DNA from: Bacteroidota bacterium
GTDB taxonomy: Bacteria > Bacteroidota > Bacteroidia > Cytophagales > Cyclobacteriaceae
NCBI GenBank assembly: GCA_016866235.1
Contig: VGMW01000008.1
Location: 1-64,000, forward strand
Reading direction: 5' to 3'
Length of the DNA: 64,000 bases
The stretch's first letter is position 1. Every line of letters starts with the position of its first letter. Under the pieces are notes generated by a model. It was not told the origin of the DNA and ran no database searches. It worked only from the letters and a program-made list of their open reading frames with translations. The position numbers and the translations under genes are program-made. Below are positions 28,218-55,497 of the stretch, piece after piece.

Positions 28218-28289
28218 AAAATCAAAGACTTGAATTTAATCAAAACAGGGAGTTGAATTTATGGTTCATTTCAGATGTCGCCTTAAGAA

Positions 28290-29427: not shown

Positions 29428-29447
29428 GTTTTGTCTAAGGTAATCCG

Positions 29448-31449: not shown

Positions 31450-31573
31450 AAGTGTGGGTTTTCCCGAAATAAAAACAATTCCTGCAGCTTGACAACTGTG
31501 ACGATGATCAGGATCATTTTAACAACCGCAGCAACTCATGCCCGAAGGTTTCGTCCTCCAATAATTTGGCCCA

Positions 31574-33796: not shown

Positions 33797-33890
33797 ACTT
33801 AGTTGCGGCGGCGCCCATTGAGCCGCAGTAGTAAAACAATCCCTGTTCAGGGTGTTGTTCCATTCACTTTTATTTCAAAATACTGAGTTT

Positions 33891-35174
33891 ATGACTGGTA
33901 AAATTATTTCGTGGTCTTTAAAAAACCGATTCCTCGTCGTGCTGGTTGCAACAGCACTGTTTTTATGGGGACTCAACAGCATGCGCCATTCACGGGTAGA
34001 TGCCATCCCTGACTTATCCGAAAATCAGGTGATTGTTTTCACGGAATGGAATGGACGCGGGCCGCAGGTAATCGAAGATCAAATCACCTATCCACTGGTG
34101 ACCAATCTTCAATCGTTACCCCGCGTAAAATATGTTCGTGCCAACTCCATGTTTGGAATGAGTTTCATCTACGTGATTTTCGAAGATGATGCCGATGTCT
34201 ATGAAGCACGTACCCGGGTACTGGAGCGATTGAATTATGCGTCACGGCTTTTGCCGGAAGGGGTTGCCCCTACCCTCGGGCCTGATGGCACCGGTGTCGG
34301 CCACATTTTGTGGTACACCCTGGAAGCACCCGGTATGGATCTCGGTGAGCTGCGCGCACTGCAGGACTGGTACGTAAAATTCGGATTACAGGATGTTGAA
34401 GGCGTTAGCGAAGTAGCGTCGTTCGGTGGATTTCAAAAACAATATGAGGTAACCGTTGATCCAAATAAACTCAACGCCTTCCGACTAGGCTTTGGTGATG
34501 TTTTACAAACCCTCCAAGAGAACAACAATGAAACCGGCGGTAGAAAATTTGAAATGGGTGGCGCTGGTTACATCGTCAAAACAACAGGCTACCTGGGTAA
34601 GGCAGAAGAAATTGAACAACTGGCCCTGAAGTCAGAAGGAAACTCCGTGGTGCGGATTAAAGATGTTGGGGTGGTGCAAACCACCGGCGAATCGCGGACC
34701 GGAATTTTTGATTTGAACGGAGAGGGCGAAGCGGTAGGCGGTATTGTGGTCATGCGCTATGGGGCCAACGCTACCGAAGTCATTGAAAAAGTCCGGGGTA
34801 AAATGATGTCTGTTGCACGTGGATTTCCAGCTGGTGTAAAGTTCAATGTAGTCTACGACAGAAGTGAACTCGTACAGGAGGCCATCACCTCTGTACGCAA
34901 TACGCTGTTGGAGGAAATGTTGGTGGTGGGCATGGTGGTTATTTTCTTTTTGTTTAACTGGCGGGGAGCGTTAAGTATTCTGATTCAGATCCCGGTAACG
35001 GTCGCCACCAGTTTTGTTTTACTCAACGCCTTCGGAATTGAGTCCAACATCATGTCACTCACCGGAATTGCACTGGCCATTGGCGTGATCGCCGACAACG
35101 GCATCATCATGGCCGAGAACGCCCACAAGCACTTGAGCGAAAGACATCAGCAACTCAATCCTTCCTCCTTCTGA
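33891..35174 (+). CDS. CusA/CzcA-type heavy-metal RND pump, N-terminal part (frameshifted)
   Basis: The ATG at 33891 is chosen (MTGKIISWSLKNRF); an ATG-free extension to 33852 is less likely. These 427 residues hold TM1, the first periplasmic porter domain (RVDAIPDLSENQVIVFTEW... is the heavy-metal efflux signature) and TM2 to TM4 with IGVIADNGIIMAENAHKH. The frame stops at TGA 35172-35174 in the cytoplasmic loop between TM4 and TM5. The rest continues in the +1 frame. Adding one base, or losing two, at about 35160-35172 would restore a normal pump of about 1,067 residues. The pump exports Cu+/Ag+ or divalent cations from periplasm or cytosol, powered by protons. Confidence 0.85.
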   Translation: MTGKIISWSLKNRFLVVLVATALFLWGLNSMRHSRVDAIPDLSENQVIVFTEWNGRGPQVIEDQITYPLVTNLQSLPRVKYVRANSMFGMSFIYVIFEDDADVYEARTRVLERLNYASRLLPEGVAPTLGPDGTGVGHILWYTLEAPGMDLGELRALQDWYVKFGLQDVEGVSEVASFGGFQKQYEVTVDPNKLNAFRLGFGDVLQTLQENNNETGGRKFEMGGAGYIVKTTGYLGKAEEIEQLALKSEGNSVVRIKDVGVVQTTGESRTGIFDLNGEGEAVGGIVVMRYGANATEVIEKVRGKMMSVARGFPAGVKFNVVYDRSELVQEAITSVRNTLLEEMLVVGMVVIFFLFNWRGALSILIQIPVTVATSFVLLNAFGIESNIMSLTGIALAIGVIADNGIIMAENAHKHLSERHQQLNPSSF

Positions 35175-35175
35175 T

Positions 35176-37092
35176 ATGAGCAACAACCACAATTTCAGCA
35201 GCATGAGTGAAGAGGAGCGCATCGGTATCATTGAAAAATCAAGCCGACAGGTTTCGCGTGGCGTCTTCTATTCCACGATTATCATCATCACCTCTTTTCT
35301 GCCGGTGTTTATGTTAACCGGACAGGAAGGCAAACTGTTCCATCCCCTGGCCTGGACCAAGACATTTATTCTGGCGGTCGATGCCTTGTTGGTGATCACA
35401 CTTGCTCCGGTAATCATATCCTTTTTTATGAAGGGGAAATTCAGACCAGAGCAGCACAATCCCATAAATCGATTTCTGGAAAGGATGTACGCTCCGGTGA
35501 TTCGGGCATGCATTAAATACCGTCGCACCACGCTGTTCATCAACCTGCTTGCCCTTGGTATTTCCATTCCGTTGCTGATGAATACCGGTCGGGAATTCAT
35601 GCCACCGTTGGACGAACAGTCGATCTTATTTATGCCCGTTACGTTACCGGATGTTTCCAATGCAGAGGCCAAACGCATTTTACAACTCCAGGATAAAATC
35701 ATTGCTGGTATTCCGGAAGTAAAGCAGGTCCTTGGAAAAGCGGGCAGAGCATCGACTGCCACCGACAACTCCCCCATCAGCATGATCGAAACCATCATCA
35801 TGCTGAAGCCCAAAAGCGAATGGAGGGACGGCATCACCAAAAAAGACATTATAGCTGAACTCGACGCCAAACTTCGGATTCCAGGCGTGGTGAATGGCTG
35901 GACCCAACCCATCATCAACCGAATCAACATGTTGTCGACGGGGATTCGGACTGATGCCGGAATAAAAGTCTTTGGCAGCCGGATCGATTCAATTGAAATG
36001 GTGTCGGCGAAGATTAAAAAAATTCTTTCGGGGATGGATGGCGTGAAGGACCTCTATGTTGAACCCCTCAGTGGAGGAAAATACCTGGAGATTGTCGTGG
36101 ATCGTGATGCTGCCGGGCGATTGGGTGTAACCATGGATGACATCAATATGGCAACGGAGGCAGCGTTGGGTAGTGCGATGGCCGGACAGACCATTGAAGG
36201 TCGCAGGCGTTTTAACATCAGCGTGCGGTTGGCACAGGATTACCGTGATGATCTTCAAAAAATTGGCAGGATCCCCGTGATGACCATGAGCCGTGGAGCG
36301 GTACCCCTCACCGAGGTAGCTGAAATAAAAATAGCGGATGGACCGGCGATGATAACCTCTGAGAACGCCCTTTTACGCGGGGGTGTATTGTTCAATGTTA
36401 GGGGAAAGGATTTGGCGGGGACCATTGAGGCCGCCATTAGCGCCCTTCAAAACGAAAAAGACCTTCTTCCACAGGGATACTTTATTGAGTGGAGCGGGCA
36501 ATATGAAAACCTGATTCGTTCACAGGAAAGATTGGCATTGATCATACCTGTGGTGCTCATCATAATTTTTCTGTCACTATACTTTGCTTTTCATTCCATT
36601 CGGGAAGCCTTTTTGAATCTGATTACGGTACCCTTCGCACTGGTCGGTGGTGTATTTATGATTTGGTTTTATGACGTTAACCTTTCGGTTGCGGTGGCCG
36701 TCGGATTTATTGCACTCTTCGGAATTGCCGTAGAAACAGGCGTCGTTATGGTGATATACCTCAATGATGCCGTTCTGCAAATGAAAAAGCGAAAAGAAGC
36801 CAGCGGCGAAACCATCACCGCAGACGATTTAAAAGAAGCGGTGATCGAAGGTGCAGCGAAGCGACTGCGTCCAAAAATAATGACGGTGTGTGTCGCTTTG
36901 TTTGGCTTGGTGCCTGTCTTATGGTCAACAGGCGTTGGCAGCGATGTTATGATCCCGATTGTGTTGCCCATGATCGGTGGTGTTATTTCTTCATCGACCC
37001 ACATTTTGTTGGTGACACCGCTGATCTTTTTAATGACCAAAGAATATGAACTAAAAAAATTTGGCAAACCGGAAGTTTATGAAGCACATTAA
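35176..37092 (+). CDS. CusA/CzcA-type heavy-metal RND pump, C-terminal part (frameshifted)
   Basis: 638 residues in the +1 frame. An ATG at 35176 directly follows the TGA of the first part (TGATATG), so restart by coupling is possible. It contains TM5-TM6 (FYSTIIIITSFLPVFMLTGQEGKLFHPLAWTKT is a typical CusA segment) and the second porter domain with TM7-TM12. The second half has the ANNN-free ITVPFALVGGVFMIWFYDVN and AVEVG-like FGIAVETGVVMV segments. The split falls in a cytosolic loop, so two chains could in principle reassemble. A frameshift mutation or assembly error is simpler. The 3' end overlaps the TolC gene by 14 bases. Confidence 0.85.
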   Translation: MSNNHNFSSMSEEERIGIIEKSSRQVSRGVFYSTIIIITSFLPVFMLTGQEGKLFHPLAWTKTFILAVDALLVITLAPVIISFFMKGKFRPEQHNPINRFLERMYAPVIRACIKYRRTTLFINLLALGISIPLLMNTGREFMPPLDEQSILFMPVTLPDVSNAEAKRILQLQDKIIAGIPEVKQVLGKAGRASTATDNSPISMIETIIMLKPKSEWRDGITKKDIIAELDAKLRIPGVVNGWTQPIINRINMLSTGIRTDAGIKVFGSRIDSIEMVSAKIKKILSGMDGVKDLYVEPLSGGKYLEIVVDRDAAGRLGVTMDDINMATEAALGSAMAGQTIEGRRRFNISVRLAQDYRDDLQKIGRIPVMTMSRGAVPLTEVAEIKIADGPAMITSENALLRGGVLFNVRGKDLAGTIEAAISALQNEKDLLPQGYFIEWSGQYENLIRSQERLALIIPVVLIIIFLSLYFAFHSIREAFLNLITVPFALVGGVFMIWFYDVNLSVAVAVGFIALFGIAVETGVVMVIYLNDAVLQMKKRKEASGETITADDLKEAVIEGAAKRLRPKIMTVCVALFGLVPVLWSTGVGSDVMIPIVLPMIGGVISSSTHILLVTPLIFLMTKEYELKKFGKPEVYEAH

Positions 37093-42991: not shown

Positions 42992-43198
42992 TCAGGTATC
43001 TTCAGATTTTCCGGACGGCTGTACAATGCCAGCCAACAGATAACCCATCATACCACCATAACCGGAGCTAATCCAAGGAGAGGAAGTTATCGGGCATGAG
43101 CCGCTGACACATCCAATTTGTTGCCAATAAAGCAGGCCACCTGCCATTCCTAACATTAGCCCTGCGACCGGTATAAACCATTTATGCCGAAACCACAT
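42992..43198 (-). CDS. DUF6132 family small membrane protein
   Basis: 68 residues from ATG 43198. Two short hydrophobic segments (about 8-25 and 47-60) flank the family signature IGCVSGSCPITSSPWISSGYGG, which contains two Cys five residues apart. DUF6132 genes lie beside rhodanese and sulfide/persulfide metabolism genes, as here, and the protein may move sulfur across the membrane in the way YeeE/YedE does. It starts 5 bases after the MBL-rhodanese gene, in one operon. Confidence 0.8.
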   Translation of the reverse strand: MWFRHKWFIPVAGLMLGMAGGLLYWQQIGCVSGSCPITSSPWISSGYGGMMGYLLAGIVQPSGKSEDT

Positions 43199-43203
43199 TG
43201 GAT

Positions 43204-44613
43204 TTATTTTTTGGAGGAACAAACAAAGTCCGTTCTGGAAATATTGGTTTCAGCAATGGCCTTGAATCCACCAGCCACATCAATGATGTTGTTCCAACCT
43301 CGGGCGCGAAGGATGGAGTTGGCAATCATAGACCGGTAACCACCTGCGCAATAACAATACACCTTTCCTTCTTTGGGGATTTCGGCCAGGTGATCATTTA
43401 AGAAATCCAGTGGCGTGGATACTGAATCAGTGACATGTTCAGCAGAATATTCACTTGGTTTACGAACGTCAATTACAGAAACTTTTTCCTTTGACAGGAT
43501 GGACTCAAACTCATTGGCAGATATGGATTTTATGAGGTCGATTGTTTTACCAAAGGACTTCCAGGTGGAGATGCCACCTTCCAGATAACCCAGTACATTG
43601 GTATAACCAACCCTGGCCAGACGCATAATCACTTCCTCTTCCCTACCCGGCATTGTTACCAATAAGAGCGGATGATCTACACCGGGGATCAATGCACCCA
43701 CCCAGGGAGCGAAACTTCCATCGATTCCAATGTTCACAGAATTTGGAATAAAACCACCAGCAAAATCTTGTGCAGCCCGGGTATCCAGGACCAATGCACC
43801 GGCTTCATTGGCTGCAGCTTCGAACGCATCTGCCGAAAGACTATGCAAACCCCGCTTCATCATTTGATCGTAATTCTCATAACCCTCCCTATTCAGGCGA
43901 ACGTTATCAGGGAAGTAGGCTGGCGGCGGAAGTAAATCGTACGTAAGCTCATGGATAAACTCATCCCTTGACATGTTATCACGTAAGGCGTAATTCATTT
44001 TCTTCTGGTTGCCCAGGGAGTCTACCGTTTCCTTCATCATGTTTTTACCACATGCCGAGCCTGCACCATGGGCAGGGTAAACCGTGATGTCATCTGAAAG
44101 CACCATGATTTTGGTCCGCAAAGAATCGTACAGCATTCCCGCCAACTGTTCCTGCGTCATGTTGGCTGCTTTTTGTGCCAGATCCGGACGGCCTACGTCG
44201 CCCAGGAAAAGGGTGTCGCCAGTAAAAATGGCGACCTCTTTTTCCTGCTCATCTCTTAAGAGATAGGTCACCGATTCCATGGTATGGCCAGGGGTGTGCA
44301 ACACCATTATGGAAACTTTTCCAAACCTTAAAATTTCCCCGTCGGCAGCTATGTGGGCCTTGAAAGAAGGTTTTGCGGTTGGACCATAAACAATGGTTGC
44401 TCCGGTTTCTCTTGAGAGATCAAGATGGCCCGAAACAAAGTCGGCATGGAAATGGGTCTCGAGCACATATTTAATGGAGGCGCCATCGGCGGCCGCTCTT
44501 TCCATATAAGGCTTAACTTCTCGTAGTGGATCGATAATAACTGCCTCATTTTCAGAAAGAATATAGTATGCACCTTGTGCAAGACATCCGGTGTAAATCT
44601 GCTCTACTTTCAT
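43204..44613 (-). CDS. Persulfide dioxygenase-like MBL fold enzyme with two rhodanese domains
   Basis: 469 residues. The N-terminal metallo-beta-lactamase domain (1-245) has the HFHADFVSGH motif (His54, His56, Asp58, His63), the HTPGHT His and the GDTLFLGDVGRPDL Asp. This is the ETHE1/BigR-type pattern with a mononuclear iron for oxidising glutathione or other persulfide to sulfite. Two rhodanese domains follow. The first (about 275-355) ends in TMPGREEEV and lacks the active-site Cys. The second (about 375-465) has a loop YCAGGYRS with the catalytic Cys. The enzyme likely detoxifies persulfide. It is co-transcribed with DUF6132 and close to a Crp/Fnr regulator. Confidence 0.9.
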   Translation of the reverse strand: MKVEQIYTGCLAQGAYYILSENEAVIIDPLREVKPYMERAAADGASIKYVLETHFHADFVSGHLDLSRETGATIVYGPTAKPSFKAHIAADGEILRFGKVSIMVLHTPGHTMESVTYLLRDEQEKEVAIFTGDTLFLGDVGRPDLAQKAANMTQEQLAGMLYDSLRTKIMVLSDDITVYPAHGAGSACGKNMMKETVDSLGNQKKMNYALRDNMSRDEFIHELTYDLLPPPAYFPDNVRLNREGYENYDQMMKRGLHSLSADAFEAAANEAGALVLDTRAAQDFAGGFIPNSVNIGIDGSFAPWVGALIPGVDHPLLLVTMPGREEEVIMRLARVGYTNVLGYLEGGISTWKSFGKTIDLIKSISANEFESILSKEKVSVIDVRKPSEYSAEHVTDSVSTPLDFLNDHLAEIPKEGKVYCYCAGGYRSMIANSILRARGWNNIIDVAGGFKAIAETNISRTDFVCSSKK

Positions 44614-44648
44614 AGACTCAGTTGTTTTTCAATTGTTTCCACAAAGAA

Positions 44649-44656
44649 CAAAACTA
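44649..44656 (-). promoter_or_regulatory. Bacteroidetes -7 element (TAGTTTTG) for the MBL-rhodanese operon
   Basis: TAGTTTTG on the minus strand, 36 bases before the ATG at 44613, with a TTA at 44675-44673, 16 bases further upstream, as a weak -33. It lies between the Crp/Fnr gene and its probable target operon. No clear Fnr-type palindrome was seen in the 88-base gap. Confidence 0.5.
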
Positions 44657-44701
44657 ACGATAAAACAATCTGTAACCCAGATCACCTAACATAGTCCATG
44701 A

Positions 44702-45331
44702 CTACATATTTCTTCGGATGATTTCCTGCCTTGAGGCCTCAATTAGGCCACGATTTTCCATCTTCTTAAGCAGTCTGGAAATAACCTCCCTGGAGGAGTT
44801 CAGATCATCTGCGATCTGCTGGTGGGTGATCTGAATCCGTCCTCCAATCACGTCAAACTGACGCTTAAGATAAAACTCCAACTTCTCGTCCATGCTATGA
44901 AAGACAACCTGGTCCATTAATTCAAGAAGCCCCTCAAAGCGATCGCGATAGGTTTGCAGAACAAAATGATACCATTCTTTATGGTCTCGCATGAGGCCAT
45001 CCATGTGATCGATTGGGATTGCAAGAGCCCTCACGGGGCCATCGGCCGTTGCTTTCAACTGGCTTTGCTCCTGTTTCATGGCACAAATCATCGAAAGTGC
45101 ACAAGCACCACCTGGCTCCAGGTGATATAGAAAAAATTCGCCACCATCATCACCTTCACGGTAAACCTTAACCCGTCCTTCCAAAACAATTAATGTGCTG
45201 CGGAAAAATTGACCGGGCCTCATGATTTGTTCTCCGTCACTGAATTCCACCACTTTACCTAGACGTGTTAATTCCCTAGACAGTTTTTCACCAAAACCGG
45301 GAAATGCCTTTCTTAATTCCTGATCCATCAT
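44702..45331 (-). CDS. Crp/Fnr family transcriptional regulator
   Basis: 209 residues. The cyclic-nucleotide-binding fold (about 15-135) is followed by a helix-turn-helix of the Crp type (ITHQQIADDLNSSREVISRLLKKMENRGLIE, about 170-200). The N-terminal Fe-S Cys cluster of Fnr is absent. Instead a CALSMIC motif after the GG turn, with two Cys at about 74 and 79, is typical of a Bacteroidetes group that may respond to redox, sulfur or NO. It is likely to regulate the adjacent MBL-rhodanese-DUF6132 operon. Start ATG 45331 is followed by a second Met; either could be used. Confidence 0.88.
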   Translation of the reverse strand: MMDQELRKAFPGFGEKLSRELTRLGKVVEFSDGEQIMRPGQFFRSTLIVLEGRVKVYREGDDGGEFFLYHLEPGGACALSMICAMKQEQSQLKATADGPVRALAIPIDHMDGLMRDHKEWYHFVLQTYRDRFEGLLELMDQVVFHSMDEKLEFYLKRQFDVIGGRIQITHQQIADDLNSSREVISRLLKKMENRGLIEASRQEIIRRNM

Positions 45332-45459
45332 AATTCACGTAAAAATAGTTAATGAAAATTCAGGGTATAAAATTTCCAAATCGCTTACTGATTACGATCA
45401 TTTAAACCCTTGTAAATCATCAGCCTGACGCGCAATGGTGCGAGCCTACTTTCGGGCTC

Positions 45460-46137
45460 ATGAACGGCATCAGGTCAACTCGAGGTTTTTCAGCAACAGA
45501 AAATTTAGAATTCAAACTTCGCTCCGGAAAAATCAGCTGTCTGGTTCTTGTCCCTGAAAAATTTTCTGGTGTTATGCTGGTTACCAATGGAAGGTTCCAG
45601 GATAAGGATAGCTCCAGAAGGGAAGCCATAGAGGCTTTTACTGAAAATGGATGGGCACCTGCCTTTCCAAACCTTTTAACACCCAGGGAAGCCTCGGAGC
45701 ACCACTTTCGCATGGATTCCGAATTGCAGACTTCGCGCCTGATAATGGTTATACGTCACCTGAGGTCCATGCCAAGGTTTATCGACAAACCCTTGGCACT
45801 TTTCGGAAGTGGTTGGGGTGCGGTGATTGCCTGGAAAACAGCCTTGAGAATGCCAGGTGAATTGCACGGATTGGCGTTTAGCGATCCACCGGAATATTTT
45901 GAACCCAATGATTTAAGAGAGATAACGATCCCATGCCTGGTTATTTCGGATCGACTGCCTGATTTGAATTCAAACCACTCACCAATCCCAGTGCAGTGGC
46001 ACGTGAGCAGCAGAAAACATCGGAAAGGGTTATGCAACGCCGTTAAAATGGCCTCTGACTGGATCTCCAGAAGCTATAGAATAAGAGACCATCACCAGGG
46101 AAGATTCAACACCGAAGCCTTACTTCAACACAACTGA
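45460..46137 (+). CDS. Alpha/beta-hydrolase-like protein lacking the nucleophile Ser
   Basis: 225 residues with a dienelactone hydrolase-like fold. The nucleophile elbow, usually G-A-S-T-G in this group, reads GSGWG (residues 116-120), so Gly118 occupies the Ser position and classic hydrolysis is not expected. A downstream Asp loop (VISDRLPD) is kept, while the His loop reads SSRKHRKG. Homologous hydrolase domains are often fused to phosphoribosyltransferases. Here the next gene is exactly such a transferase, overlapping by one base (TGATG). A non-enzymatic partner role is inference. This gene starts a plus-strand block that includes the following regulator. Confidence 0.7.
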   Translation: MNGIRSTRGFSATENLEFKLRSGKISCLVLVPEKFSGVMLVTNGRFQDKDSSRREAIEAFTENGWAPAFPNLLTPREASEHHFRMDSELQTSRLIMVIRHLRSMPRFIDKPLALFGSGWGAVIAWKTALRMPGELHGLAFSDPPEYFEPNDLREITIPCLVISDRLPDLNSNHSPIPVQWHVSSRKHRKGLCNAVKMASDWISRSYRIRDHHQGRFNTEALLQHN

Positions 46138-46802
46138 TGAAACTCTTTCTCGACCGTGAAGATGGGGCCGCACAACTTGCACCGCTTATCCATGTTTCCC
46201 CACATGAACAGGCATTGGTTCTGGCGATCCCGAGAGGTGGCGTAATAACAGGCAAGGTTTTATGCGAGCGGTTAAAATTAAATCTGGATATAATTCTATG
46301 TAAGAAGGTCGGTCATCCCGAAAATCCTGAGTACGCTGTTGGGTCGGTTTGTGCCGATGGAACCACCATTCAGACCGTTTCCGACGAATACCTCTCGTAT
46401 AAGATCTTCGATCAAAAAGCGACCCAAATCCGTTCATGGCTAATATCGCGCTACAAAGATTTAACAGGAAAGGAATATCCTACCTCGGTTAAAGCAAGGA
46501 CAGTTATTTTAACAGACGACGGCATGGCAACAGGAAGTACCATGCTGGCAGCCATCCGGAGCCTTCGACTCGCAGGGGCGAAAAAAATCCTTGTCGCCGT
46601 ACCTGTTGCCTCCACCTCTGCAGCTGATGCCATCCGAAAGTCAGGAACAACACTGGTTTGCCCCTATACGCCTGAGCCATTTAATGCCGTCGGTGAATTT
46701 TACGACTCGTTTCCGACGGTAACAGACGATGAAGTGAGGGCCATTATGAAGACCTGGGTAAATATTTCATCAGCACATGAGCGCAAACCTGTTGAACAAT
46801 GA
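46137..46802 (+). CDS. Phosphoribosyltransferase domain protein
   Basis: 221 residues of the type I PRTase fold. The PRPP loop VILTDDGMATGST (123-135) is canonical, with Asp127-Asp128. An IPRGG loop (31-35) and the KKVGHPENPEYAVGSV segment match the group that is often fused to a dienelactone hydrolase or erythromycin esterase domain. The substrate base is unknown. These proteins are frequent in stress and low-oxygen gene sets. The start overlaps the end of the hydrolase-like gene, so the two are translated together. Confidence 0.88.
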   Translation: MKLFLDREDGAAQLAPLIHVSPHEQALVLAIPRGGVITGKVLCERLKLNLDIILCKKVGHPENPEYAVGSVCADGTTIQTVSDEYLSYKIFDQKATQIRSWLISRYKDLTGKEYPTSVKARTVILTDDGMATGSTMLAAIRSLRLAGAKKILVAVPVASTSAADAIRKSGTTLVCPYTPEPFNAVGEFYDSFPTVTDDEVRAIMKTWVNISSAHERKPVEQ

Positions 46803-46861
46803 CCGTCCTCATCAACACATCCTTATGACAACCACTAATTTTTCACTAAAAATAAACCACT

Positions 46862-47911
46862 ATGCAAAAACGAATACTGTTAATCGATGGGGACCCGGAA
46901 TCCAGAATGTCGACAGCCTCCATGCTCAAACTCGGAGGTTACGATGTGTATGAGGCGACCGAAGGAAAAACCGGTTTAGAATTGGCGTTACAAGAGATAC
47001 CGGATTTGATTCTTTGCGAAATGGATATGGACGGATTGGATGGCGCCGGCGTATTGCATGTGCTGGGTAAAAATCCAGAAACAGCCTCCATACCTTTTAT
47101 TTTTCAAGGCGATGGAAGCACCCCGGAAGATATCAGGAATGGAATGAACCTTGGCGCTGACGATTACCTTTCCAAACCGTTCAACAGTACCGATCTTCTG
47201 AGTGTTATTGAAATACGAATGCGAAAAAGGGAGGCACTAAATGGCTATAGCGAACCCGATAATGAAACACTGGAGGAAGTCTTCAAGGAAAACAAACCAA
47301 TAAGGGAAATTCAAACGCTGATGGACGGCCGTATTCACCGGGTGATGAAAAGAAAAGAGGTGATTTATGCTGAAGGTCAGGTTCCTGCCGACATCTTTTA
47401 TGTGCAGTCAGGCATGGTAAAAACTTATAAAATCAATAAGGACGGTAAAGAGCTTATCACAGGCCTTTACCGTGAAGGTAGTTTCATTGGATACCTGCCT
47501 GTGCTGCGTATGTCTACCTACACCGAGAACGCTGAAGTCCTTAGCGATGCAGAAATTGGATTCATTTCAAAACAAGATTTTCTGAAATTACTGTACAAAA
47601 ACAACGAAGCAGCAACCCGATTTATTCAGTTGCTAACCAGACAAATCGCTGAAACAGAAAACCGAATGCTGACCATCGCCTATGATTCGGTCCGTCAAAA
47701 AGTTGCACAGGCCTTGTTAACAGTCGGCAAATACAACGAAGAGATCACCAAACCATTCAGAATTGCCAGACGGGATTTATCCGGGCTTATTGGTACAGCC
47801 ACCGAATCACTAAATCGGACGCTGGCTGATTTCAAAGACGAAGGCTTGATCAACATTAACCCTGAAGGCATTCAAATATTGAATCCAGTTAAACTTGAAC
47901 GTATGCGCTGA
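46862..47911 (+). CDS. REC-Crp/Fnr fusion transcription regulator with degenerate receiver
   Basis: 349 residues. The N-terminal receiver (1-120) has lost its phosphorylation site. The phosphoacceptor position is Glu53 (LILCEMDMDG, where neighbours have LILCD), the acidic pair is reduced to IDGD, and the conserved Ser/Thr is Gly83. Lys105 is kept. Residues about 150-265 form a cyclic-nucleotide-like sensor domain, and a Crp-type helix-turn-helix follows (RRDLSGLIGTATESLNRTLADFKDEGLI, about 302-330). Glu at this site often mimics phospho-Asp, so the receiver may be locked or sense something else. It is adjacent to the PRTase pair and convergent with ftsH, overlapping its end by 23 bases. Confidence 0.88.
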   Translation: MQKRILLIDGDPESRMSTASMLKLGGYDVYEATEGKTGLELALQEIPDLILCEMDMDGLDGAGVLHVLGKNPETASIPFIFQGDGSTPEDIRNGMNLGADDYLSKPFNSTDLLSVIEIRMRKREALNGYSEPDNETLEEVFKENKPIREIQTLMDGRIHRVMKRKEVIYAEGQVPADIFYVQSGMVKTYKINKDGKELITGLYREGSFIGYLPVLRMSTYTENAEVLSDAEIGFISKQDFLKLLYKNNEAATRFIQLLTRQIAETENRMLTIAYDSVRQKVAQALLTVGKYNEEITKPFRIARRDLSGLIGTATESLNRTLADFKDEGLININPEGIQILNPVKLERMR

Positions 47912-49838
47912 GCCTTACAGGCTCTTCCATTACTTCCCGTTTTCCAAGGATTTGTTGAAGCTCAGGTTGATAAACCACCTCATGGGCAAGCAGGCTTTCG
48001 GCCAGTTGCTCCAATTGGAGTCGGTGTGCCATCAGAATGTCCTTGCTTCGCTTGAAAGCTTGTTGAAGTACGTTGCGAACCTCTTCGTCCATTAGCCTGG
48101 CTGTCTCGTCGCTGAAAGGCTTTTGGATCATGTTTTCTTGTCGACCGGTGCTGTCGAAATAACTGACATGGCCCAACTTTGGATTAAATCCATAGTAAAC
48201 CACCATCATATAGGCTTCGCGTGTCACCTTCTCCAGATCGTCCAATGCTCCGGAAGAAAACTCACCGAAGATCAATTCTTCGGCTGCCCTGCCGGCCAAT
48301 AGTGCCGACAAGTGCTCGGTCAACTCCGTTTGCGTTCGAATCTGTCGCTCCGCTGGCAAGTACCAGGCAGCTCCCAGCGTTTTGCCGCGTGGTATGACGG
48401 AAACTTTTAACAACGGATCGGTATGCGCAAGAAACCAACTCACCACGGCATGGCCGGCTTCATGGTATGCAATGATCTTTTTTTCATGACTGCTGATGAT
48501 TCGGCTCTTTTTTTCCAATCCGGCAACCACCCGATCCAAAGCATCCATGAAATCTTTTTTGTCCACCCTGACTTTAGAAATTCGTGCTGCGATCAAAGCA
48601 GCCTCGTTGCAGATGTTGGCGATATCTGCCCCGGAAAATCCAGGCGTTTGACCGGCTAAAAATTCAATATCCACATCAGGTGCAGTTCGGATGTTTTTAA
48701 GGTGGACATTAAAAATTGATTTGCGCTCCAGCATACTTGGCAATTCAAGATAAATGTGACGGTCGAACCGCCCAGGTCGGAGCAGCGCCGGATCCAACAC
48801 ATCGGCCCTGTTGGTTGCCGCCAGCACAATCACGCCGCTGTTGGTGCCAAAGCCATCCATTTCCGTGAGCAACTGATTGAGCGTACTTTCTCTTTCATCG
48901 TTGGCACCGGTGTACAAAGAATTCCTGCCTCTTGACCTTCCAACCGCATCGATTTCATCTATAAAAACAATACACGGCGCCTTTTCTTTTGCCCGCCGAA
49001 AAAGATCCCTGACCCTGCTGGCACCAACACCAACAAACATTTCAACAAATTCAGAACCCGATAAATTAAAAAAGGGAACCCGTGCCTCTCCTGCCACCGC
49101 CCGAGCCAGCAATGTTTTGCCGGTTCCGGGCGGACCGACAATCATGATGCCCTTTGGAATGCGCGCACCAAGCTTGGTGTATCGTGCAGGATCTTTTAAA
49201 AAATCACAAATCTCACGGACCTCCAGTTTGGCTTCTTCGAGGCCTGCAACATCTGCGAACGTCACCGGACTTTTATTTCCTTCTTCAATTAACCGCGCTG
49301 TACTCTTTCCAAAAGAGAAAATGGAGGGGCCTGCCCCAGGCGAACCTGTGCTGCCCTGTGAAACAGAACCATACATCCGAAACAGAAAAAACAGCAGCAA
49401 CAAGGGAAAGAGCCATGGCAAAAAGTCCATCCAGAGACTGTGCTCTGCAGTATACTTTACTTCAATCCGTTGATCGGCAGGTAAATTGGCTTGAGCCAGA
49501 TCCAACTTCCGCTCGAAGGACTCGGGCGAGCCGATGGTGAAACGGTAGTGCGGACCCGGATTGATTTTATCAGTCGATAACGGACCGGTTCTAAAAGCAT
49601 CCTTAAAACGTGTGTCATCCGAAAAATTGGATTTAATGAATACCCTGGCTTCGTTGTTGTTGACGATGAGAACCCTGTCCACTGCACCAGTGAGTAACAT
49701 TTGGCGCTCAAACCGCTGCCACGAAATTTCCTCTACCGGGTAAAGGTCTTTCACGCTCAGGAATACAATTAAGGCCAGTACACCTACAATGACCAACCAA
49801 CCGCCCTGAAAGGCTTGTGGGTATTTATCAGCATTCAT
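47889..49838 (-). CDS. ftsH: ATP-dependent zinc metalloprotease FtsH (accessory paralogue)
   Basis: 649 residues. Two N-terminal membrane helices (about 13-28 and 135-153) flank a small periplasmic domain. The AAA+ module has Walker A GPPGTGKT (235-242), Walker B VFIDEID (291-297) and the second region of homology with arginine fingers ([20 protein letters not shown]). The M41 protease has HEAGH (459-463) and [12 protein letters not shown] with the third zinc ligand. It degrades membrane and soluble proteins. Housekeeping FtsH in Bacteroidetes is usually near other genes, and pairing with DUF2267 in a stress region suggests this is an extra, inducible copy. The two genes are 16 bases apart. 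Confidence 0.92.
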
Positions 49839-49854
49839 CTATTAAGGGTTATGA

Positions 49855-50319
49855 TTATCCGGTGATTGGAGCCTTGGCTTTTCCCCAGGAAAGTATCTCA
49901 TTCCGAAGATCTTCGGGAACCGTTGCGGCGATGTCCTGCAATTCCCCTGGTGAAATAAATTCAGTAAGTACACCCATCACCAATCGGATGGCATGTGCCG
50001 CTTCCTGCTGACTGGAGAAATCGCGCCAAACCGTCCGACCATCCTCCTTCATTACTTCATCGGCCAAATCCTCGAGAGAACGAATGGATTTATTAAGCTT
50101 TTCCGGTTTCCAGCCTTCCACATAAACGGACTTCAATGCCATGGGCAGCTGTGCCATGAATTGAAATGACTCCTCCATCGAAAACCGGTTGCGCAGTGCA
50201 TGCAAAACACTTCGAAGAACCCTCGCAGCATGATCGGTTCCTTTGCTTCCCAATACCAGATCCAGCCGGTGGACAATTTCATTTCCACGGGCAGCATATT
50301 TCTCAAAATTCAACGTCAT
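49855..50319 (-). CDS. DUF2267 domain protein
   Basis: 154 residues, all helical, cytosolic. The DUF2267 pattern includes DHAARVLRSVLHALRNRFSMEESFQFMAQLP and the VYVEGW turn, with a second half repeat ending in LPxELR-like VPEDLRNEIL. The biochemical function is unknown. The family is common in stress, photosynthetic and low-oxygen regulons. It is the first gene of a two-gene unit with ftsH and has a near-perfect promoter. Confidence 0.88.
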   Translation of the reverse strand: MTLNFEKYAARGNEIVHRLDLVLGSKGTDHAARVLRSVLHALRNRFSMEESFQFMAQLPMALKSVYVEGWKPEKLNKSIRSLEDLADEVMKEDGRTVWRDFSSQQEAAHAIRLVMGVLTEFISPGELQDIAATVPEDLRNEILSWGKAKAPITG

Positions 50320-50335
50320 AAATTTTTGGTTTGGT

Positions 50336-50363
50336 CAAAGCTATCGGTGATCTCTATAGTCAA
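50336..50363 (-). promoter_or_regulatory. Consensus Bacteroidetes promoter of the DUF2267-ftsH operon
   Basis: On the minus strand TTG (50363-50361), exactly 17 bases, TAGCTTTG (50343-50336). Both boxes match the consensus. Transcription would start at about 50330, giving a leader of about 11 bases before the ATG at 50319. This is the best promoter match in the window. Confidence 0.7.
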
Positions 50364-50465
50364 AAATGATGTCTGTTCGGTATCCTCATAACCACGATTA
50401 CCGATGGTCATTGAAAGAGCAGATTTTCATCATTGAATGATTTAATTGGATGAATTACTTTGCGG

Positions 50466-50828
50466 ATGACCATGAAAGCTGAGCATCTCCGTTTTATACA
50501 ATGGCTTCCCAGAGTAGCCAATTTTGGAATCGCTGTTTTCCTAAGCTTGTTTGCCATGGATGTTTTCAGTGAAGGTTACCGCCCGCTTCAATTGGCACAA
50601 AATCTCTTCCTTCATCTTTTGCCGGCCTTATCTATGATTTTGATTCTGTTCGTTTCATGGCGAAGACCTATGGCAGGTGGCTTGGTGCTTCCGCTCCTTG
50701 CGGTGGCTTATGCATGGATGAGTCGACACAATCTGAGTGCGGTGGCCGCCATCAGCGGACCGCTTTTGGTTACCGGCTTGTTGTATTGGGTTAGTCACCG
50801 AACCAGAACCTCCTATCGTAGGGGATAG
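50466..50828 (+). CDS. Small four-helix membrane protein (DUF7670-like)
   Basis: 120 residues from ATG 50466 (MTMKAEH); a TTG at 50460 and an ATG at 50472 are alternatives. Four predicted membrane helices (about 17-33, 43-60, 66-82, 89-105). The first helix carries the motif LPRVANFGIAVFLSLFAMDVFSEG, which I recognise from a widespread small membrane protein family (DUF7670) of unknown function. No charged catalytic residues lie inside the helices. It is divergent from the DUF2267 gene and 38 bases upstream of the formate dehydrogenase genes. Confidence 0.65.
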   Translation: MTMKAEHLRFIQWLPRVANFGIAVFLSLFAMDVFSEGYRPLQLAQNLFLHLLPALSMILILFVSWRRPMAGGLVLPLLAVAYAWMSRHNLSAVAAISGPLLVTGLLYWVSHRTRTSYRRG

Positions 50829-50866
50829 CACCAGGTTTAGTATCTTTCTCATTCGAAACCTCGTGC

Positions 50867-52540
50867 ATGTCGGAAAACCTGAGTTATTTATCCGGAAGAA
50901 AGGGCCTTAAACAAAACCTCTTTGAATTAATGGGCGACGCAGCCCATGGTACCGGCACACCGGATCTGGATAAACTGGAACAACTGCGCAAAGCGTTTTT
51001 GGTCGGCAAGAGCTCAGTTTACGGCGCGATGTCCTTCTATGATTTCCTGAAACCCGAAAATGCAGGTAAAAAGATTTATTACTGCAGCGGAAGCGCCTGT
51101 ATGACCGCCGGCACTCAGGATCAACTCAAACATGAAATTCAAAAGCATTTTAAATCCGAGGAAATTGGTGCCATGTGCTGCCTTGGAAGATGCCATGAAA
51201 ACCATGCCTTTCATTTTAATGGCAAAAACTATAGTGGCAAAGAAGGACTTCGCGCCCTCAAGGAAGATTCATTGACCAGCATTTCCAGTGGCACCACCGA
51301 CCAATACCAGGTAAAAAGTTTAGGCAGGGGCATTTTAACTGGAAGCCAATCAGATCTTAACAGCTTTCGAGGTTGGTTTGAAAAGGTTCGATCCCTGGAA
51401 ACAGTGCAATGGCTGGAAGAAATAAAAAAGTCTGGCTTGCGAGGACGTGGTGGTGCCGGATTTTCCACTGCCTTTAAACTGGATGCCTGCCGAAAAGCAA
51501 AAGGCACAGAAAAGTTTATTGTTTGTAATGCCGACGAAGGAGATCCGGGAGCATTTTCGGATCGATATCTTCTGGAACACCAACCGTTTTTGGTTTTGGG
51601 CGGAATGTTGTTGGCCGGATTGGCCGCTGGCGCCAAATGGGGTGTTGTTTACATCCGTGGAGAATATCCTGAATCGGTGGAGGTTATAACAAAAACCATC
51701 CACGAACTTGAACAAGCCGGGCTAATTGGCGAAAACATCAGGAACACCGGCGCTTCATTTCAATTCAAGGTGATTAAGGCACAGGGTGCTTATATCTGCG
51801 GAGAGGAAACTGCTTTACTCTCTTCGATTGAAGGCCAGCGACCGGAAGTCAGGGTCCGACCACCTTATCCTGCAGTCCAAGGATTGTTCAATCAACCGAC
51901 GGTGGTCAGCAATGTTGAGACGCTCGCCAACCTCCCCTTTATTCTTAAAAATGGCGGATTAGAATTTTCCAAAATAGGCAGGGGTAAATCCACCGGCACC
52001 AAACTTGTTTCATTAGACGGTTTCTTTAAAACACCGGGCATTGTTGAAGCAGAAATGGGAACGCCCGTGGATCGAATAATCATGGAGGCCGGCGGTGGAT
52101 ACCGCGTGCCGGTTAAAGCGCTTCATATTGGCGGTCCACTGGGAGGCCTAGTTCCGATCCATAAAACAAAGGATCTGTGCCTTGATTTTGAATCCTTCGC
52201 AGAGCATGGATTCCTGCTGGGTCATGCATCGGTGGTTTGTATTCCTTCTGAATTTCCGCTTATAAAATACATTACCCACCTGTTTGAATTTACGGCCCAT
52301 GAAAGTTGCGGGAAATGTTTTCCCTGCCGACTGGGCTCACAACGCGGTGCCGAAATGTTTAAAAAAGCAGCGGAAGGTGAATACCGCATCGATCGAAAAT
52401 TATTGGATGATCTTTTGGAAACCCTTGAGTCCGGATCCTTGTGCATGCTTGGCGGAGGACTGCCGCTACCCATCCGGAATGGTTTACAATATTTTAGTGA
52501 GGAACTGACAACCTATTTCACTTCCAAAGCAAACACATGA
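50867..52540 (+). CDS. NAD-dependent formate dehydrogenase diaphorase subunit (NuoE-NuoF fusion)
   Basis: 557 residues. Residues 1-120 form a NuoE/FdsG-like thioredoxin domain with the [2Fe-2S] Cys set C73, C78, C105 and C109. Residues about 165-555 are NuoF/FdsB-like, with the FMN and NADH site GLRGRGGAGFSTAFK, NADEGDPGAFSDR, the GAYICGEETALL loop and the [4Fe-4S] Cys of ESCGKCFPCR plus the later CMLGG. In FdsABG-type formate dehydrogenases the two parts are separate chains. Here they are fused. Electrons from formate would pass to NAD+ via FMN. The stop overlaps the catalytic subunit start (ATGA). Confidence 0.9.
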   Translation: MSENLSYLSGRKGLKQNLFELMGDAAHGTGTPDLDKLEQLRKAFLVGKSSVYGAMSFYDFLKPENAGKKIYYCSGSACMTAGTQDQLKHEIQKHFKSEEIGAMCCLGRCHENHAFHFNGKNYSGKEGLRALKEDSLTSISSGTTDQYQVKSLGRGILTGSQSDLNSFRGWFEKVRSLETVQWLEEIKKSGLRGRGGAGFSTAFKLDACRKAKGTEKFIVCNADEGDPGAFSDRYLLEHQPFLVLGGMLLAGLAAGAKWGVVYIRGEYPESVEVITKTIHELEQAGLIGENIRNTGASFQFKVIKAQGAYICGEETALLSSIEGQRPEVRVRPPYPAVQGLFNQPTVVSNVETLANLPFILKNGGLEFSKIGRGKSTGTKLVSLDGFFKTPGIVEAEMGTPVDRIIMEAGGGYRVPVKALHIGGPLGGLVPIHKTKDLCLDFESFAEHGFLLGHASVVCIPSEFPLIKYITHLFEFTAHESCGKCFPCRLGSQRGAEMFKKAAEGEYRIDRKLLDDLLETLESGSLCMLGGGLPLPIRNGLQYFSEELTTYFTSKANT

Positions 52541-55239
52541 GCGGAATAGCCTACATCAACGGAAAGGGATATGAATGCAATGAGGGGGAAACCATCCTTT
52601 CTTTTGTTCGAAGACATACACACGAGGCTAAAATTCCAACACTTTGTGACGCCCCCAATCTTAAACCCTATGGTGCCTGTCGGGTTTGCAGCGTTGAAGT
52701 GTCGTTGAGTGAAAATGGAAATCTGAAAACCGTTGCATCCTGTCATACAACGGTTGCACCGGGTCAGTATATTCTAACTGATTCGGAAAAAATCCTCCGG
52801 TTGAGGAAAAATATCGTTGAGCTCGTTTTAACAGATCATCCGCTGGACTGCCTCACGTGCGAAGTCAACAACCACTGTGAACTGCAAAGCGTTGCAGCGG
52901 AGGTCGGCATAAGGGATGTTCGATATCCGAAGGGCAAAAATCATCAGGATGTTCCCAAAGACAGGTCGCATCCGTACATGACCTCTGACTTGTCGAAATG
53001 CATCAATTGTTCCAGATGTGTTCGTGCCTGTGATGAGGTGCAAGGATCTATGGTGCTGAGCATGGCGGGGCGTGGATTCGACAGTCGGATCATCAAAAGC
53101 TTTGATCAGAATTTTCTGGATTCCGATTGTGTGAGCTGTGGCGCCTGTGCACAGGCCTGTCCAACTTCGGCTATTTCAGATGTTTTTGAATCAAAGAGCA
53201 CGGTTGCCGATAAAAAGATCAGAACGGTGTGCACCTATTGCGGCGTCGGTTGCAATCTTGAAGTGTCTGTAAAAGCGGAGAAGGTAAAGTCTATCCAGGC
53301 CCCCTACGACGCTGAAGTCAATCAGGGACATACCTGTTTAAAAGGACGGTACGCCTTTTCGTTTTACAATCATCCGGAACGCTTGCGCACACCGCTCATT
53401 CGAAAGAATGGTGCCTTGGTTCCTGCCAGCTGGGATGAAACCTATGATTTTCTTGCCACCAAACTCAGCGATATAAGATTAAAACACGGTCCGGATTCGA
53501 TTGCCGGAATTTCCTCTGCCCGTTGCACCAATGAGGAAAATTATCTGATGCAAAAGTTCATCCGTGCCGTGGTTGGTACCAACAACATTGATTCCTGCGC
53601 CCGTGTTTGTCACTCTCCCACTGCCCTGGGTATGCAACGCGCCTTTGGTACCGGTGCAGCAACCAATTCCATCGAAGACCTTAAGCACACCGATTGTATT
53701 TTGGTTATTGGTGCGAATCCTACCGAAGCCCATCCGGTCACAGGAGCCAAATTCAAGCAATTCGCGATGAAAGGAAAGACCACCATTGTGATCGATCCCA
53801 GAAAAACCGAACTCGCCCGCTACGCCACGCATCATTTACCCTTGCGGCCCGGTACCAATGTCGCACTGCTCAACATGATGCTGCACTATATTCTCAAGGA
53901 AGGCCTCGAGGATAAAAAATTCATCGAAGAACGTACCGAGGCTTTTGAAGCTTTCAGAGAACAGTTGCTAAATCTGGATGTTGCAGCAATGGAGAAAATT
54001 TGCGGTGTTGATCGTGAGCTGGTTAAAAAAGCAGCGATCGCTTACGCATCAGCGCCCAATGCAATGTCCTTTCACGGACTGGGTGTAACCGAACATTCCT
54101 ATGGTACTTATTCAGTGATGCTGATTTCAGACCTCGCCATGATCACCGGCAACATTGGTAGACCTGGCGTCGGCGTGAATCCGCTTCGTGGACAAAACAA
54201 TGTGCAGGGTGCAGCCGACATGGGTTGTCAGCCCCATCAGGGTGCAGGCTATTTGGATGTAACAGACCAGGCTAATCATCTTCGGTACGAACAGCATTAC
54301 GGCGTTAAACTGCCAACCCAGAAAGGTTTAAAAATTCCGGAGATGTATGATGCGGCACTAGCCGGACAATTAAAAGTCATGTGGCTGATGGGTGAAGATG
54401 TTGCACAGACCGATCCCAATACAAGCCGGGTAAAAGAGGCACTCAGTCAACTTGAGCTTTTGGTGGTTCAGGAATTGTTTATGACGGAGACAGCCAGACT
54501 GGCAACCGTGGTTCTACCTGGTGCCAGTTTCCTTGAGAAGAGCGGCACATTTACGAATGGTGAGAGAAGGATTCAGCGCGTAAACCAGGTGGTCGATCCA
54601 TTGCCAGGCACAAAGTCTGACGGTCAGATTATTTGTGACATGATGAACCGAATGGGCTACACACAGGCCGACTATGATCCAGCGGTAGTGCTTAAAGAGA
54701 TTTCAGGCATTGTCCCTTTCTTCGAAGGGGTCCGATGGGATGAGTTGGGCGAAAATGGAAAACAATGGCCGGTAACCAAAGGTGGACAGGATACCAAAAT
54801 CCTTCATCAGGAAACTTTCAAACGTGGTAAAGGCAAGTTTCATTCTTTCAATTTTATTGAAAGCCATGAAATAACCGACAACGCCAAATCATTCCCTTAC
54901 ATCATCACCACCAACCGTGAACTGGAGCATTACAATTCAGGCACGATGACACGCCGAACCAGAAACAGTCAACTGCTGCAAGAGGATGTGCTCATGATCA
55001 ATCCACAGGACGCACACCGAAATCAGATTAATGAAGGCGATACAGTAGTGGTGGAGTCGGCACGAGGTCAGGTCAGGATTAAAGCCACGATTACAGAAGA
55101 GGTTAAACCTGGCGTACTGAGCAGCACTTTCCACTTTCCGGAAATCAACCTGAATGTACTGGGCTCTAACGAACACGACGTTGAGGCCTTATGTCCGGAA
55201 TATAAAGTTGTGGCTGTCCGAATCCGTAAGGCTGGATAG
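52537..55239 (+). CDS. fdhF: Formate dehydrogenase catalytic (alpha) subunit, molybdopterin, Cys type
   Basis: 900 residues, soluble. The N-terminal NuoG-like part carries [2Fe-2S] Cys37, 48, 51 and 69, the His-Cys3 cluster (His101, Cys105, 108, 114), and two [4Fe-4S] clusters (Cys155-165 and Cys198-208). The bis-MGD domain begins with its own [4Fe-4S] set Cys232, 235, 239 and 267. The active-site metal ligand is Cys358 in ARVCHSP (TGT codon, no selenocysteine), followed by His359. With the fused diaphorase subunit it forms an NAD+-dependent formate dehydrogenase. No FdhD or molybdopterin synthesis genes are in the window. No Tat signal is present. Confidence 0.92.
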   Translation: MSGIAYINGKGYECNEGETILSFVRRHTHEAKIPTLCDAPNLKPYGACRVCSVEVSLSENGNLKTVASCHTTVAPGQYILTDSEKILRLRKNIVELVLTDHPLDCLTCEVNNHCELQSVAAEVGIRDVRYPKGKNHQDVPKDRSHPYMTSDLSKCINCSRCVRACDEVQGSMVLSMAGRGFDSRIIKSFDQNFLDSDCVSCGACAQACPTSAISDVFESKSTVADKKIRTVCTYCGVGCNLEVSVKAEKVKSIQAPYDAEVNQGHTCLKGRYAFSFYNHPERLRTPLIRKNGALVPASWDETYDFLATKLSDIRLKHGPDSIAGISSARCTNEENYLMQKFIRAVVGTNNIDSCARVCHSPTALGMQRAFGTGAATNSIEDLKHTDCILVIGANPTEAHPVTGAKFKQFAMKGKTTIVIDPRKTELARYATHHLPLRPGTNVALLNMMLHYILKEGLEDKKFIEERTEAFEAFREQLLNLDVAAMEKICGVDRELVKKAAIAYASAPNAMSFHGLGVTEHSYGTYSVMLISDLAMITGNIGRPGVGVNPLRGQNNVQGAADMGCQPHQGAGYLDVTDQANHLRYEQHYGVKLPTQKGLKIPEMYDAALAGQLKVMWLMGEDVAQTDPNTSRVKEALSQLELLVVQELFMTETARLATVVLPGASFLEKSGTFTNGERRIQRVNQVVDPLPGTKSDGQIICDMMNRMGYTQADYDPAVVLKEISGIVPFFEGVRWDELGENGKQWPVTKGGQDTKILHQETFKRGKGKFHSFNFIESHEITDNAKSFPYIITTNRELEHYNSGTMTRRTRNSQLLQEDVLMINPQDAHRNQINEGDTVVVESARGQVRIKATITEEVKPGVLSSTFHFPEINLNVLGSNEHDVEALCPEYKVVAVRIRKAG

Positions 55240-55413
55240 TCATTTAAGTTTACTTTTTCGCTTCAAAAATTTTCCTTTTGGCTTTTTGGACTCCTTGAGT
55301 TGGGTCATGTTCTCTTCTTGAGGACGTCGGGCTTCCACCAAATAGGATTTCTCCTGATCACGTTTCAAAAAGCGCTCCGCCTTAACATACTGTCTGTTCT
55401 TCATAGGTTTCAT
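55240..55413 (-). CDS. Small basic hypothetical protein
   Basis: 57 residues, MKPMKNRQYVKAERFLKRD at the start and a Lys-rich tail (about 17 Lys and 6 Arg in all). No domain is recognised. Coding is suggested by an ATG start (55413) with a nearby Met alternative (55404), and by an extent that exactly fills the gap to the formate dehydrogenase stop on the other strand. It may be a nucleic-acid-binding small protein. Short length makes this uncertain. Confidence 0.5.
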   Translation of the reverse strand: MKPMKNRQYVKAERFLKRDQEKSYLVEARRPQEENMTQLKESKKPKGKFLKRKSKLK

Positions 55414-55497
55414 TTTGCAAACAAGGGTACGATATTAACCTACGATGTGACCATGATTTGAATCAATGGTCTCCGGTATGTTGTAACTTAGTGGCCC

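What the first reader, a model, noticed from the sequence alone, without database searches (positions are those of the whole stretch)
42992..55413. Candidate low-oxygen/redox stress island
Twelve genes combine persulfide detoxification, two Crp-type regulators, a PRTase pair, accessory FtsH with DUF2267, a small membrane protein and formate dehydrogenase. Similar components occur in low-oxygen regulons of other phyla, but I do not know this combination with a phosphosite-mutant REC-Crp regulator from Bacteroidetes. This is the best candidate in the window for an undescribed system.
Basis: inference. Interest (0 to 1): 0.7.

Follow-up and report, generated by a model that had tools for sequence, protein, structure and literature searches.

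The report
Low-oxygen stress genes with silenced switch
Five genes in the middle of this stretch belong to a recurring set of stress genes, probably for low oxygen, found in related bacteria; the gene that should switch them on has lost the spot where its signal is normally written, and the genes on either side look like separate neighbours.

Summary
The twelve genes are present but are probably not one system. A core, 45,460-50,319 (hydrolase-like, PRTase, REC-CRP, FtsH, DUF2267), recurs in Cytophagales relatives with ACS, Hsp20, USP and BON genes, partly behind a palindrome, TGAT-N4-ATCA, that is strongly intergenic (59 of 104 and 62 of 94 hits in two locus sets; control palindromes 13% and 21%). 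In the window it lies between Crp1 and the hydrolase gene, and in perfect 14-base form before an acyl-CoA synthetase gene (31,574). Persulfide (42,992-45,331) and formate dehydrogenase (50,472-55,239) genes were absent from all 34 related REC-CRP neighbourhoods examined. The REC-CRP belongs to a stress-linked paralogue clade, apart from the cbb3-oxidase-linked one. Unlike all 77 distinct homologues in that comparison it has lost the phospho-aspartate (D53E) and the surrounding active-site loops, while its other domains are conserved; no kinase gene adjoins it. It is probably an aspartate-less receiver, constitutive or kinase-independent. The neighbouring hydrolase has also lost its nucleophile serine, so decay is a live rival. 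Low oxygen, box binding and kinase independence are inferred, not shown. Verdict: partly supported; new variant of a known kind.

The parts
31504..31517 (.). perfect ATGATNNNNATCAT box, 56 nt between it and the ACS start codon
   Evidence: one of 7 in the whole genome
42992..43222 (-). DUF6132 small membrane protein (persulfide module)
43204..44613 (-). metallo-beta-lactamase plus two rhodanese domains, persulfide dioxygenase type
44702..45331 (-). Crp1: Crp-type regulator with only two cysteines, C77 and C83 (C-x5-C)
45388..45401 (.). CTGATTACGATCAT box between Crp1 and the hydrolase gene (one mismatch to ATGATNNNNATCAT)
45460..46137 (+). alpha/beta-hydrolase-like protein, nucleophile serine lost (FGSGWG where 4 relatives have FGASTG)
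46137..46802 (+). phosphoribosyltransferase, DDGMATGST loop present (motif recalled); its ATG overlaps the hydrolase stop codon
46862..47911 (+). REC-CRP regulator with aspartate-less receiver (D10G, D53E, T83G)
47889..49838 (-). second-type FtsH protease; HEAGH and GPPGTGKT motifs present (motifs recalled)
49855..50319 (-). DUF2267 protein
50472..50828 (+). DUF7670 membrane protein (TTG start at 50460 also possible)
50867..52540 (+). FdhB, NuoE-NuoF type subunit
52537..55239 (+). FdhA, formate dehydrogenase alpha subunit
   Evidence: TIGR01591 792.9 bits, cut-off 666.25
55240..55413 (-). 57-aa basic ORF, no family tested

Best explanation
The stretch is a composite of three modules. The core (hydrolase-PRTase-REC-CRP on plus, FtsH-DUF2267 on minus) is this genome's version of a Cytophagales stress gene set, probably for low oxygen or dormancy, whose genes in relatives often stand behind a palindrome TGAT-N4-ATCA (enrichment shown). 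REC-CRP proteins usually sit next to a PAS histidine kinase gene and fall into a cbb3-linked group and a stress-linked clade (shown). The window's copy falls in the stress clade but has lost the phosphosite and has no kinase gene beside it (shown). I infer that it acts without phosphorylation, either constitutively (D to E mimic) or through another input, and helps to drive genes behind the box, its own operon and the ACS gene included. The persulfide and formate dehydrogenase modules came to lie beside it by rearrangement and are probably controlled apart from it (inferred from relatives).
For: Stress clade: 38 rows, FastTree support 0.976; an earlier 10-row version has 100/98 in IQ-TREE. Neighbours within 9.5 kb, 34 clade loci (window and 3 duplicates left out) against 43 others: BON 11 v 0, ketohexokinase-like (pfkB) 8 v 0, GH57 6 v 0, PRTase 8 v 2, Hsp20 11 v 5, cbb3 genes 1 v 20 (reference proteins checked with Pfam). 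The window's FtsH type was found in 3 relatives among 116 genomes (own included); in each it lies within 2 kb of DUF2267 or PRTase, and in Fulvivirga kasyanovii, at 64% identity, on the same 14 kb as REC-CRP, PRTase, Hsp20, BON and USPs. Hydrolase homologues in 4 fetched loci sit with PRTase, DUF2267, FtsH or ACS. Box: 60 of 105 hits intergenic in 12.1% of the DNA, 12 control palindromes pooled 43 of 328; recount without overlapping loci and the own-genome locus 59 of 104, controls 42 of 320; replicate in 35 other loci 62 of 94 in 16.2%, controls 31 of 151, with boxes before PRTase, FtsH, USP, Hsp20, BON, kinase and ccoN genes among others. Receiver: all 77 distinct other rows keep D53; of columns at least 90% conserved the window loses 15 of 59 in REC, 12 of them at active-site positions, but 4 of 40 in cNMP plus HTH. 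Published: Glu is the commonest replacement in aspartate-less receivers (26%) and can go with constitutive activity (PMC4395418, passages).
Against: FtsH (3 v 1) and DUF2267 (4 v 2) alone do not separate the stress clade from the other REC-CRPs (p 0.32 and 0.40), nor does USP (17 v 25). The DUF2267 and REC-CRP pairs of G010, G024, G043 and G061 involve nearly identical REC-CRPs that are not in the stress clade. No good box lies between DUF2267 and DUF7670 (best 2 mismatches). In one search, 39 of the 79 downstream genes listed were of no class I had named. Of the controls some reached 6 of 13 and 7 of 18 intergenic. In the window's own genome only 7 perfect ATGAT-N4-ATCAT sites exist and by my reading 2 are in promoter position. 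No USP or Hsp20 gene was seen in the window at 30-60 kb. Four more distant Crp1-like genes (36-40% identity) have a one-mismatch box starting 63-69 nt upstream, about where it lies before the window's Crp1; no control palindrome gave more than 2, so a role of the box for Crp1 stays open. Binding to the box is untested. The long branch (1.42) and the lost hydrolase nucleophile also fit decay.
Confidence: 0.58

Rival explanations
1. Relaxed selection: the hydrolase-PRTase-REC-CRP operon is decaying in a small genome; the receiver and hydrolase have lost their active sites because they are no longer needed.
For: Two active sites lost side by side; branch 1.42 against a median of 0.22; no kinase neighbour; genome 2.77 Mb, while most same-genus genomes listed are 3-5 Mb.
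Against: All frames open; 44 of 59 conserved REC columns kept and losses cluster at the phosphorylation site; 36 of 40 conserved cNMP plus HTH columns kept; PRTase loop present; a box with one mismatch lies upstream.
Confidence: 0.25
2. One twelve-gene low-oxygen and redox regulon, with persulfide removal and formate oxidation as working parts.
For: Physical adjacency; a box lies between Crp1 and the hydrolase gene and could serve both directions; four distant Crp1-like genes have a near-box at about the same distance; in G027 FdhB and a REC-CRP are 27.6 kb apart.
Against: 0 of 34 stress-clade loci hold MBL-rhodanese, Crp1 or FDH; the 10 closest Crp1 orthologues with a full frame (48-65% identity) have no box with up to one mismatch; of 12 FdhB loci 5 hold formate-tetrahydrofolate ligase and 6 FdhD, none the stress genes; no good box before FDH.
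Confidence: 0.15
3. The receiver is not dead but modified at Glu or bound by a ligand, so the regulator still answers a signal from an unlinked kinase or a small molecule.
For: K105 and an acidic residue at position 9 kept; published aspartate-less receivers keep acidic residue 1 in 65% of cases and some bind small molecules (PMC4395418, passages).
Against: D10 and T83 lost, residues that in ordinary receivers serve metal binding and switching (roles and recalled).
Confidence: 0.2

Closest known systems
Aspartate-less receiver (ALR) regulators, e.g. RitR, ChxR (PMC4395418, passages seen)
   Same: receiver by profile, phospho-Asp replaced by Glu, second acidic residue lost, Lys kept
   Different: CRP-type output; its homologues compared here all keep the phosphosite and mostly adjoin a kinase gene
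FixL-FixJ-FixK type microaerobic control of cbb3 oxidase (recalled)
   Same: 20 of 43 REC-CRPs outside the stress clade lie by cbb3 oxidase genes and 41 of 43 by a kinase gene; FNR-like palindrome
   Different: receiver and CRP output are one protein; window copy has no kinase neighbour and no phosphosite
DosR dormancy regulon of mycobacteria (PMC5309233, passages seen)
   Same: relatives' islands share USP, Hsp20 and a phosphoribosyltransferase (compare Rv0571c)
   Different: regulator is REC-CRP, not LuxR-type (recalled); the window core has no USP or Hsp20 beside it
Crp plus MBL-rhodanese persulfide module of Bacteroidota (seen here in relatives)
   Same: Crp1 homologue within 4 kb of MBL-rhodanese in G015, G016, G034, G041, G042, G054, G068, G073, G086, G107
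   Different: none of these lay beside REC-CRP in the loci fetched

Membership tests
Aspartate-less receiver | receiver domain by profile | tested here: met
   PF00072 66.6 bits
Aspartate-less receiver | conserved phospho-Asp replaced | tested here: met
   E53; all 80 other rows have D
Aspartate-less receiver | activity without Asp phosphorylation | not testable with these tools
FNR (oxygen-sensing Fe-S regulator) | cysteine cluster for an Fe-S centre | tested here: not met
   REC-CRP has one Cys (C52), Crp1 two (C77, C83); the four-Cys rule is recalled
FNR-like box regulon | palindrome related to TTGAT-N4-ATCAA before target genes | tested here: inconclusive
   TGAT-N4-ATCA enriched in intergenic DNA; exact TTGA-N6-TCAA hardly (10 of 60)
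Two-component REC-CRP with PAS kinase | kinase gene adjacent | tested here: not met
   window none; within 3.2 kb 26 of 34 clade loci and 41 of 43 others; kinase type by Pfam
DosR-like dormancy island | USP and Hsp20 in the island | tested here: not met
   none clustered at window 30-60 kb; present in relatives
Formate dehydrogenase, NAD-linked | TIGR01591 alpha subunit and NuoF-like subunit | tested here: met
   the NuoF-like subunit scores below the NuoF cut-off, as expected for a relative
Persulfide dioxygenase-rhodanese | MBL domain plus rhodanese domains | tested here: met
   PF00753 and two PF00581 stretches; no NCBIfam equivalog reached its cut-off among those listed; activity untested

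The most novel reading that the evidence does not exclude
A kinase-free switch: in one lineage a REC-CRP regulator of a low-oxygen stress island shed its phosphorylation site, changing mainly the active-site loops, kept its DNA-binding half, and so turned a signal-dependent dormancy programme into a standing or ligand-driven one, while its operon partner hydrolase became a non-catalytic protein.
Probability: 0.3. Interest if true: 0.6.

Novelty: new variant of a known kind. Interest (0 to 1): 0.42.

Why it matters
It gives a concrete, testable gene set and DNA box for a low-oxygen or dormancy response in Cytophagales, of which I saw no description in the searches made (open-access library, listings only). 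It is also a natural case of a receiver that lost phosphorylation inside a family that otherwise keeps it, with an ordinary paralogue in the same genome for comparison.

Tried and rejected
FNR consensus TTGAYNNNNRTCAA in the window: 16 matches with up to one mismatch, 12.6 expected; TTGA-N6-TCAA 2 against 2.7: no signal. Box as a Crp1 site: absent (up to one mismatch) upstream of the 10 closest Crp1 orthologues with a full frame, L140-L149, 48-65% identity. L150 and L152 (about 70%) were left out because only part of the frame matches. Against this, 4 of the more distant loci (L160, L162, L163, L164) have a one-mismatch box 63-69 nt upstream, so I weaken rather than drop this reading. A twelve-gene system: judged unlikely on linkage. 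PRTase pair: one PRTase only. Hydrolase relatives with the window protein as query: none but its own among 116 genomes at 1e-10; they came only with a relative's protein, among fetched loci alone.

REC-CRP frames of 300 aa or less left out. Loci were chosen by nearness to REC-CRP, DUF2267 or FdhB, so the box enrichment holds for such regions, not for random DNA; some loci overlap, mended. Rows are related and not independent, so p values are only a guide, and several classes were tested. Some loci are cut by contig ends. The first look of the family search scored 5 candidates a genome and sampled 390 genomes of a larger group; a mutant relative outside them would be missed.

The odds of the best reading went from 0.60 to 0.58 and of the single regulon from 0.12 to 0.15 because of the Crp1 near-boxes.
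Full report
What is there. The window is contig C8 of a 2.77 Mb genome in 12 contigs.

The regulator. At 1e-20, 99 of 116 genomes (own included) have a match to REC-CRP, many of them to one domain only. Among 81 frames over 300 aa (window, 77 distinct others and 3 duplicates) all 80 others keep the phospho-aspartate and the lysine, 79 the second acidic residue and 79 the threonine (1 has serine); the window has G10, E53, G83 and K105. In 79 proteins from 80 named loci the aspartate is kept in 79, but that search favoured intact sites. Losses at columns conserved in at least 90% of the others: 15 of 59 in REC, of which 12 lie at positions 9-11, 53-55, 57, 62 and 82-85 and 3 elsewhere (17, 21, 120); 1 of 1 in the linker; 3 of 21 in the cNMP domain; 1 of 19 in the HTH. 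The window protein is a long branch (1.42, median 0.22), so its exact place is unsure, but both trees put it in a clade apart from the cbb3-linked copies. The genome also has an ordinary paralogue at G000:C4:183313-184356 with ccoP- and ccoG-type genes nearby (types by Pfam on other members).

The neighbourhood. Within 9.5 kb, 34 stress-clade loci and 43 others differ in BON 11 v 0 (p 4.3e-5), ketohexokinase-like 8 v 0 (8.6e-4), GH57 6 v 0 (0.006), glycosyltransferase 4 v 0 (0.034), PRTase 8 v 2 (0.019), Hsp20 11 v 5 (0.046) and cbb3 genes 1 v 20 (1.6e-5); USP 17 v 25, FtsH 3 v 1, DUF2267 4 v 2 and kinase 29 v 41 do not differ significantly. The FtsH type of the window appears in 4 of 116 genomes at 1e-215, its own included; in the other three it lies about 1.0 kb (G040) and 0.8 kb (G107) from DUF2267 and 2 kb (G054) from PRTase. 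DUF2267 has 20 hits in 18 relatives at 1e-15; 7 lie within 13 kb of a full-length REC-CRP on the same contig (G010, G024, G043, G061, G048, G107, G044), four of these with nearly identical REC-CRPs. PRTase matches at 1e-20 occur in 12 of 116 genomes, own included. In Fulvivirga kasyanovii (L171) Hsp20, BON, USPs, REC-CRP, kinase, PRTase and FtsH lie within 14 kb. L122 has DUF2267, PRTase, hydrolase, an AMP-binding synthetase like the window's at 31,574, and a dehydrogenase E1 gene; L313 has REC-CRP, hydrolase and the synthetase.

The box. TGAT-N4-ATCA occurs 6 times in the window against 1.8 expected, a number reached by 1 of 100 shuffles; 4 of the 6 are intergenic. In 72 loci plus the window 60 of 105 hits are intergenic where 12.1% of the DNA is; twelve control palindromes give 43 of 328, single ones up to 7 of 18 and 6 of 13. 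Without overlapping loci and the own-genome locus it is 59 of 104, controls 42 of 320. In 35 further loci it is 62 of 94 with 16.2% intergenic, controls 31 of 151. Of 79 genes listed downstream, 39 were of no class named here; the rest are USP 11, kinase 8, BON 4, Hsp20 4, REC-CRP 3, PRTase 3, FtsH 2, ccoN 2 and others. In the window one copy lies between Crp1 and the hydrolase gene and a perfect 14-mer before the synthetase gene. The strict form occurs 7 times in the genome (reversed control 1); by my reading one other copy stands before a DUF4136 lipoprotein gene, a family also found next to DUF2267 in L118, and five lie within open frames.

The other modules. Crp1 homologues lie within 4 kb of MBL-rhodanese in ten relatives, read by eye from the lists, out of 75 relatives with a Crp1 match at 1e-25. 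The 10 closest orthologues with a full frame have no box with up to one mismatch in 150-250 nt upstream; four more distant ones have a one-mismatch box at 63-69 nt. FdhB has 12 relatives among 116 genomes; their loci hold no REC-CRP, DUF2267 or MBL-rhodanese hit at half coverage; 5 of 12 hold formate-tetrahydrofolate ligase and 6 FdhD. In G027 FdhB lies 27.6 kb from a REC-CRP. DUF7670 was found in no other locus searched. So I treat the twelve genes as three modules.

Mechanism and doubt. Shown: recurring gene association, box enrichment, loss of the phosphosite, no kinase gene beside it. Inferred: low oxygen as the signal, binding of the box by REC-CRP, phosphorylation-independent activity. 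The hydrolase has FGSGWG where four relatives have FGASTG, so a nucleophile serine is missing (nucleophile role recalled). Two lost active sites side by side make decay a serious rival; the conserved DNA-binding half, the PRTase loop and the nearby box speak against simple decay.

Literature. The aspartate-less receiver paper (PMC4395418, passages) gives Glu as the commonest replacement (26%) and reports constitutive activity in some cases. A mycobacterial dormancy review (PMC5309233, passages) lists Rv0571c as an uncharacterised phosphoribosyltransferase. Searches (listings only) showed no paper that by title or start of abstract describes this island in Bacteroidota; DUF2267 is named in one paper of the library. 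The library is open-access only, so this is weak evidence of absence.

Noticed in passing
33852-37092: An RND-type efflux pump (named by reading) appears as two adjacent frames, 33852-35174 and 35176-37092, in different reading frames; could be a split gene or a frameshift. Described only.
   Followed up: no
26307-29810: Hybrid histidine kinase and two receiver-only proteins (named by reading); a TTGAATTTAATCAA palindrome at 28230 lies just upstream of the kinase start.
   Followed up: no
L336 site 1501 (G000:C1:491696-491709): Perfect ATGAT-N4-ATCAT upstream of a DUF4136 lipoprotein gene, followed by a Na/phosphate-cotransporter-like gene (by reading).
   Followed up: partly
55454-55465: A TGAT-N4-ATCA box about 39 nt before the lipoprotein gene at 55498, just downstream of the formate dehydrogenase genes.
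   Followed up: no
L160, L162, L163, L164: Distant Crp1-like genes with a one-mismatch TGAT-N4-ATCA box 63-69 nt upstream.
   Followed up: partly
G107:C22:134330-134926: The PRTase next to REC-CRP in this relative carries two stop codons; described only.
   Followed up: no
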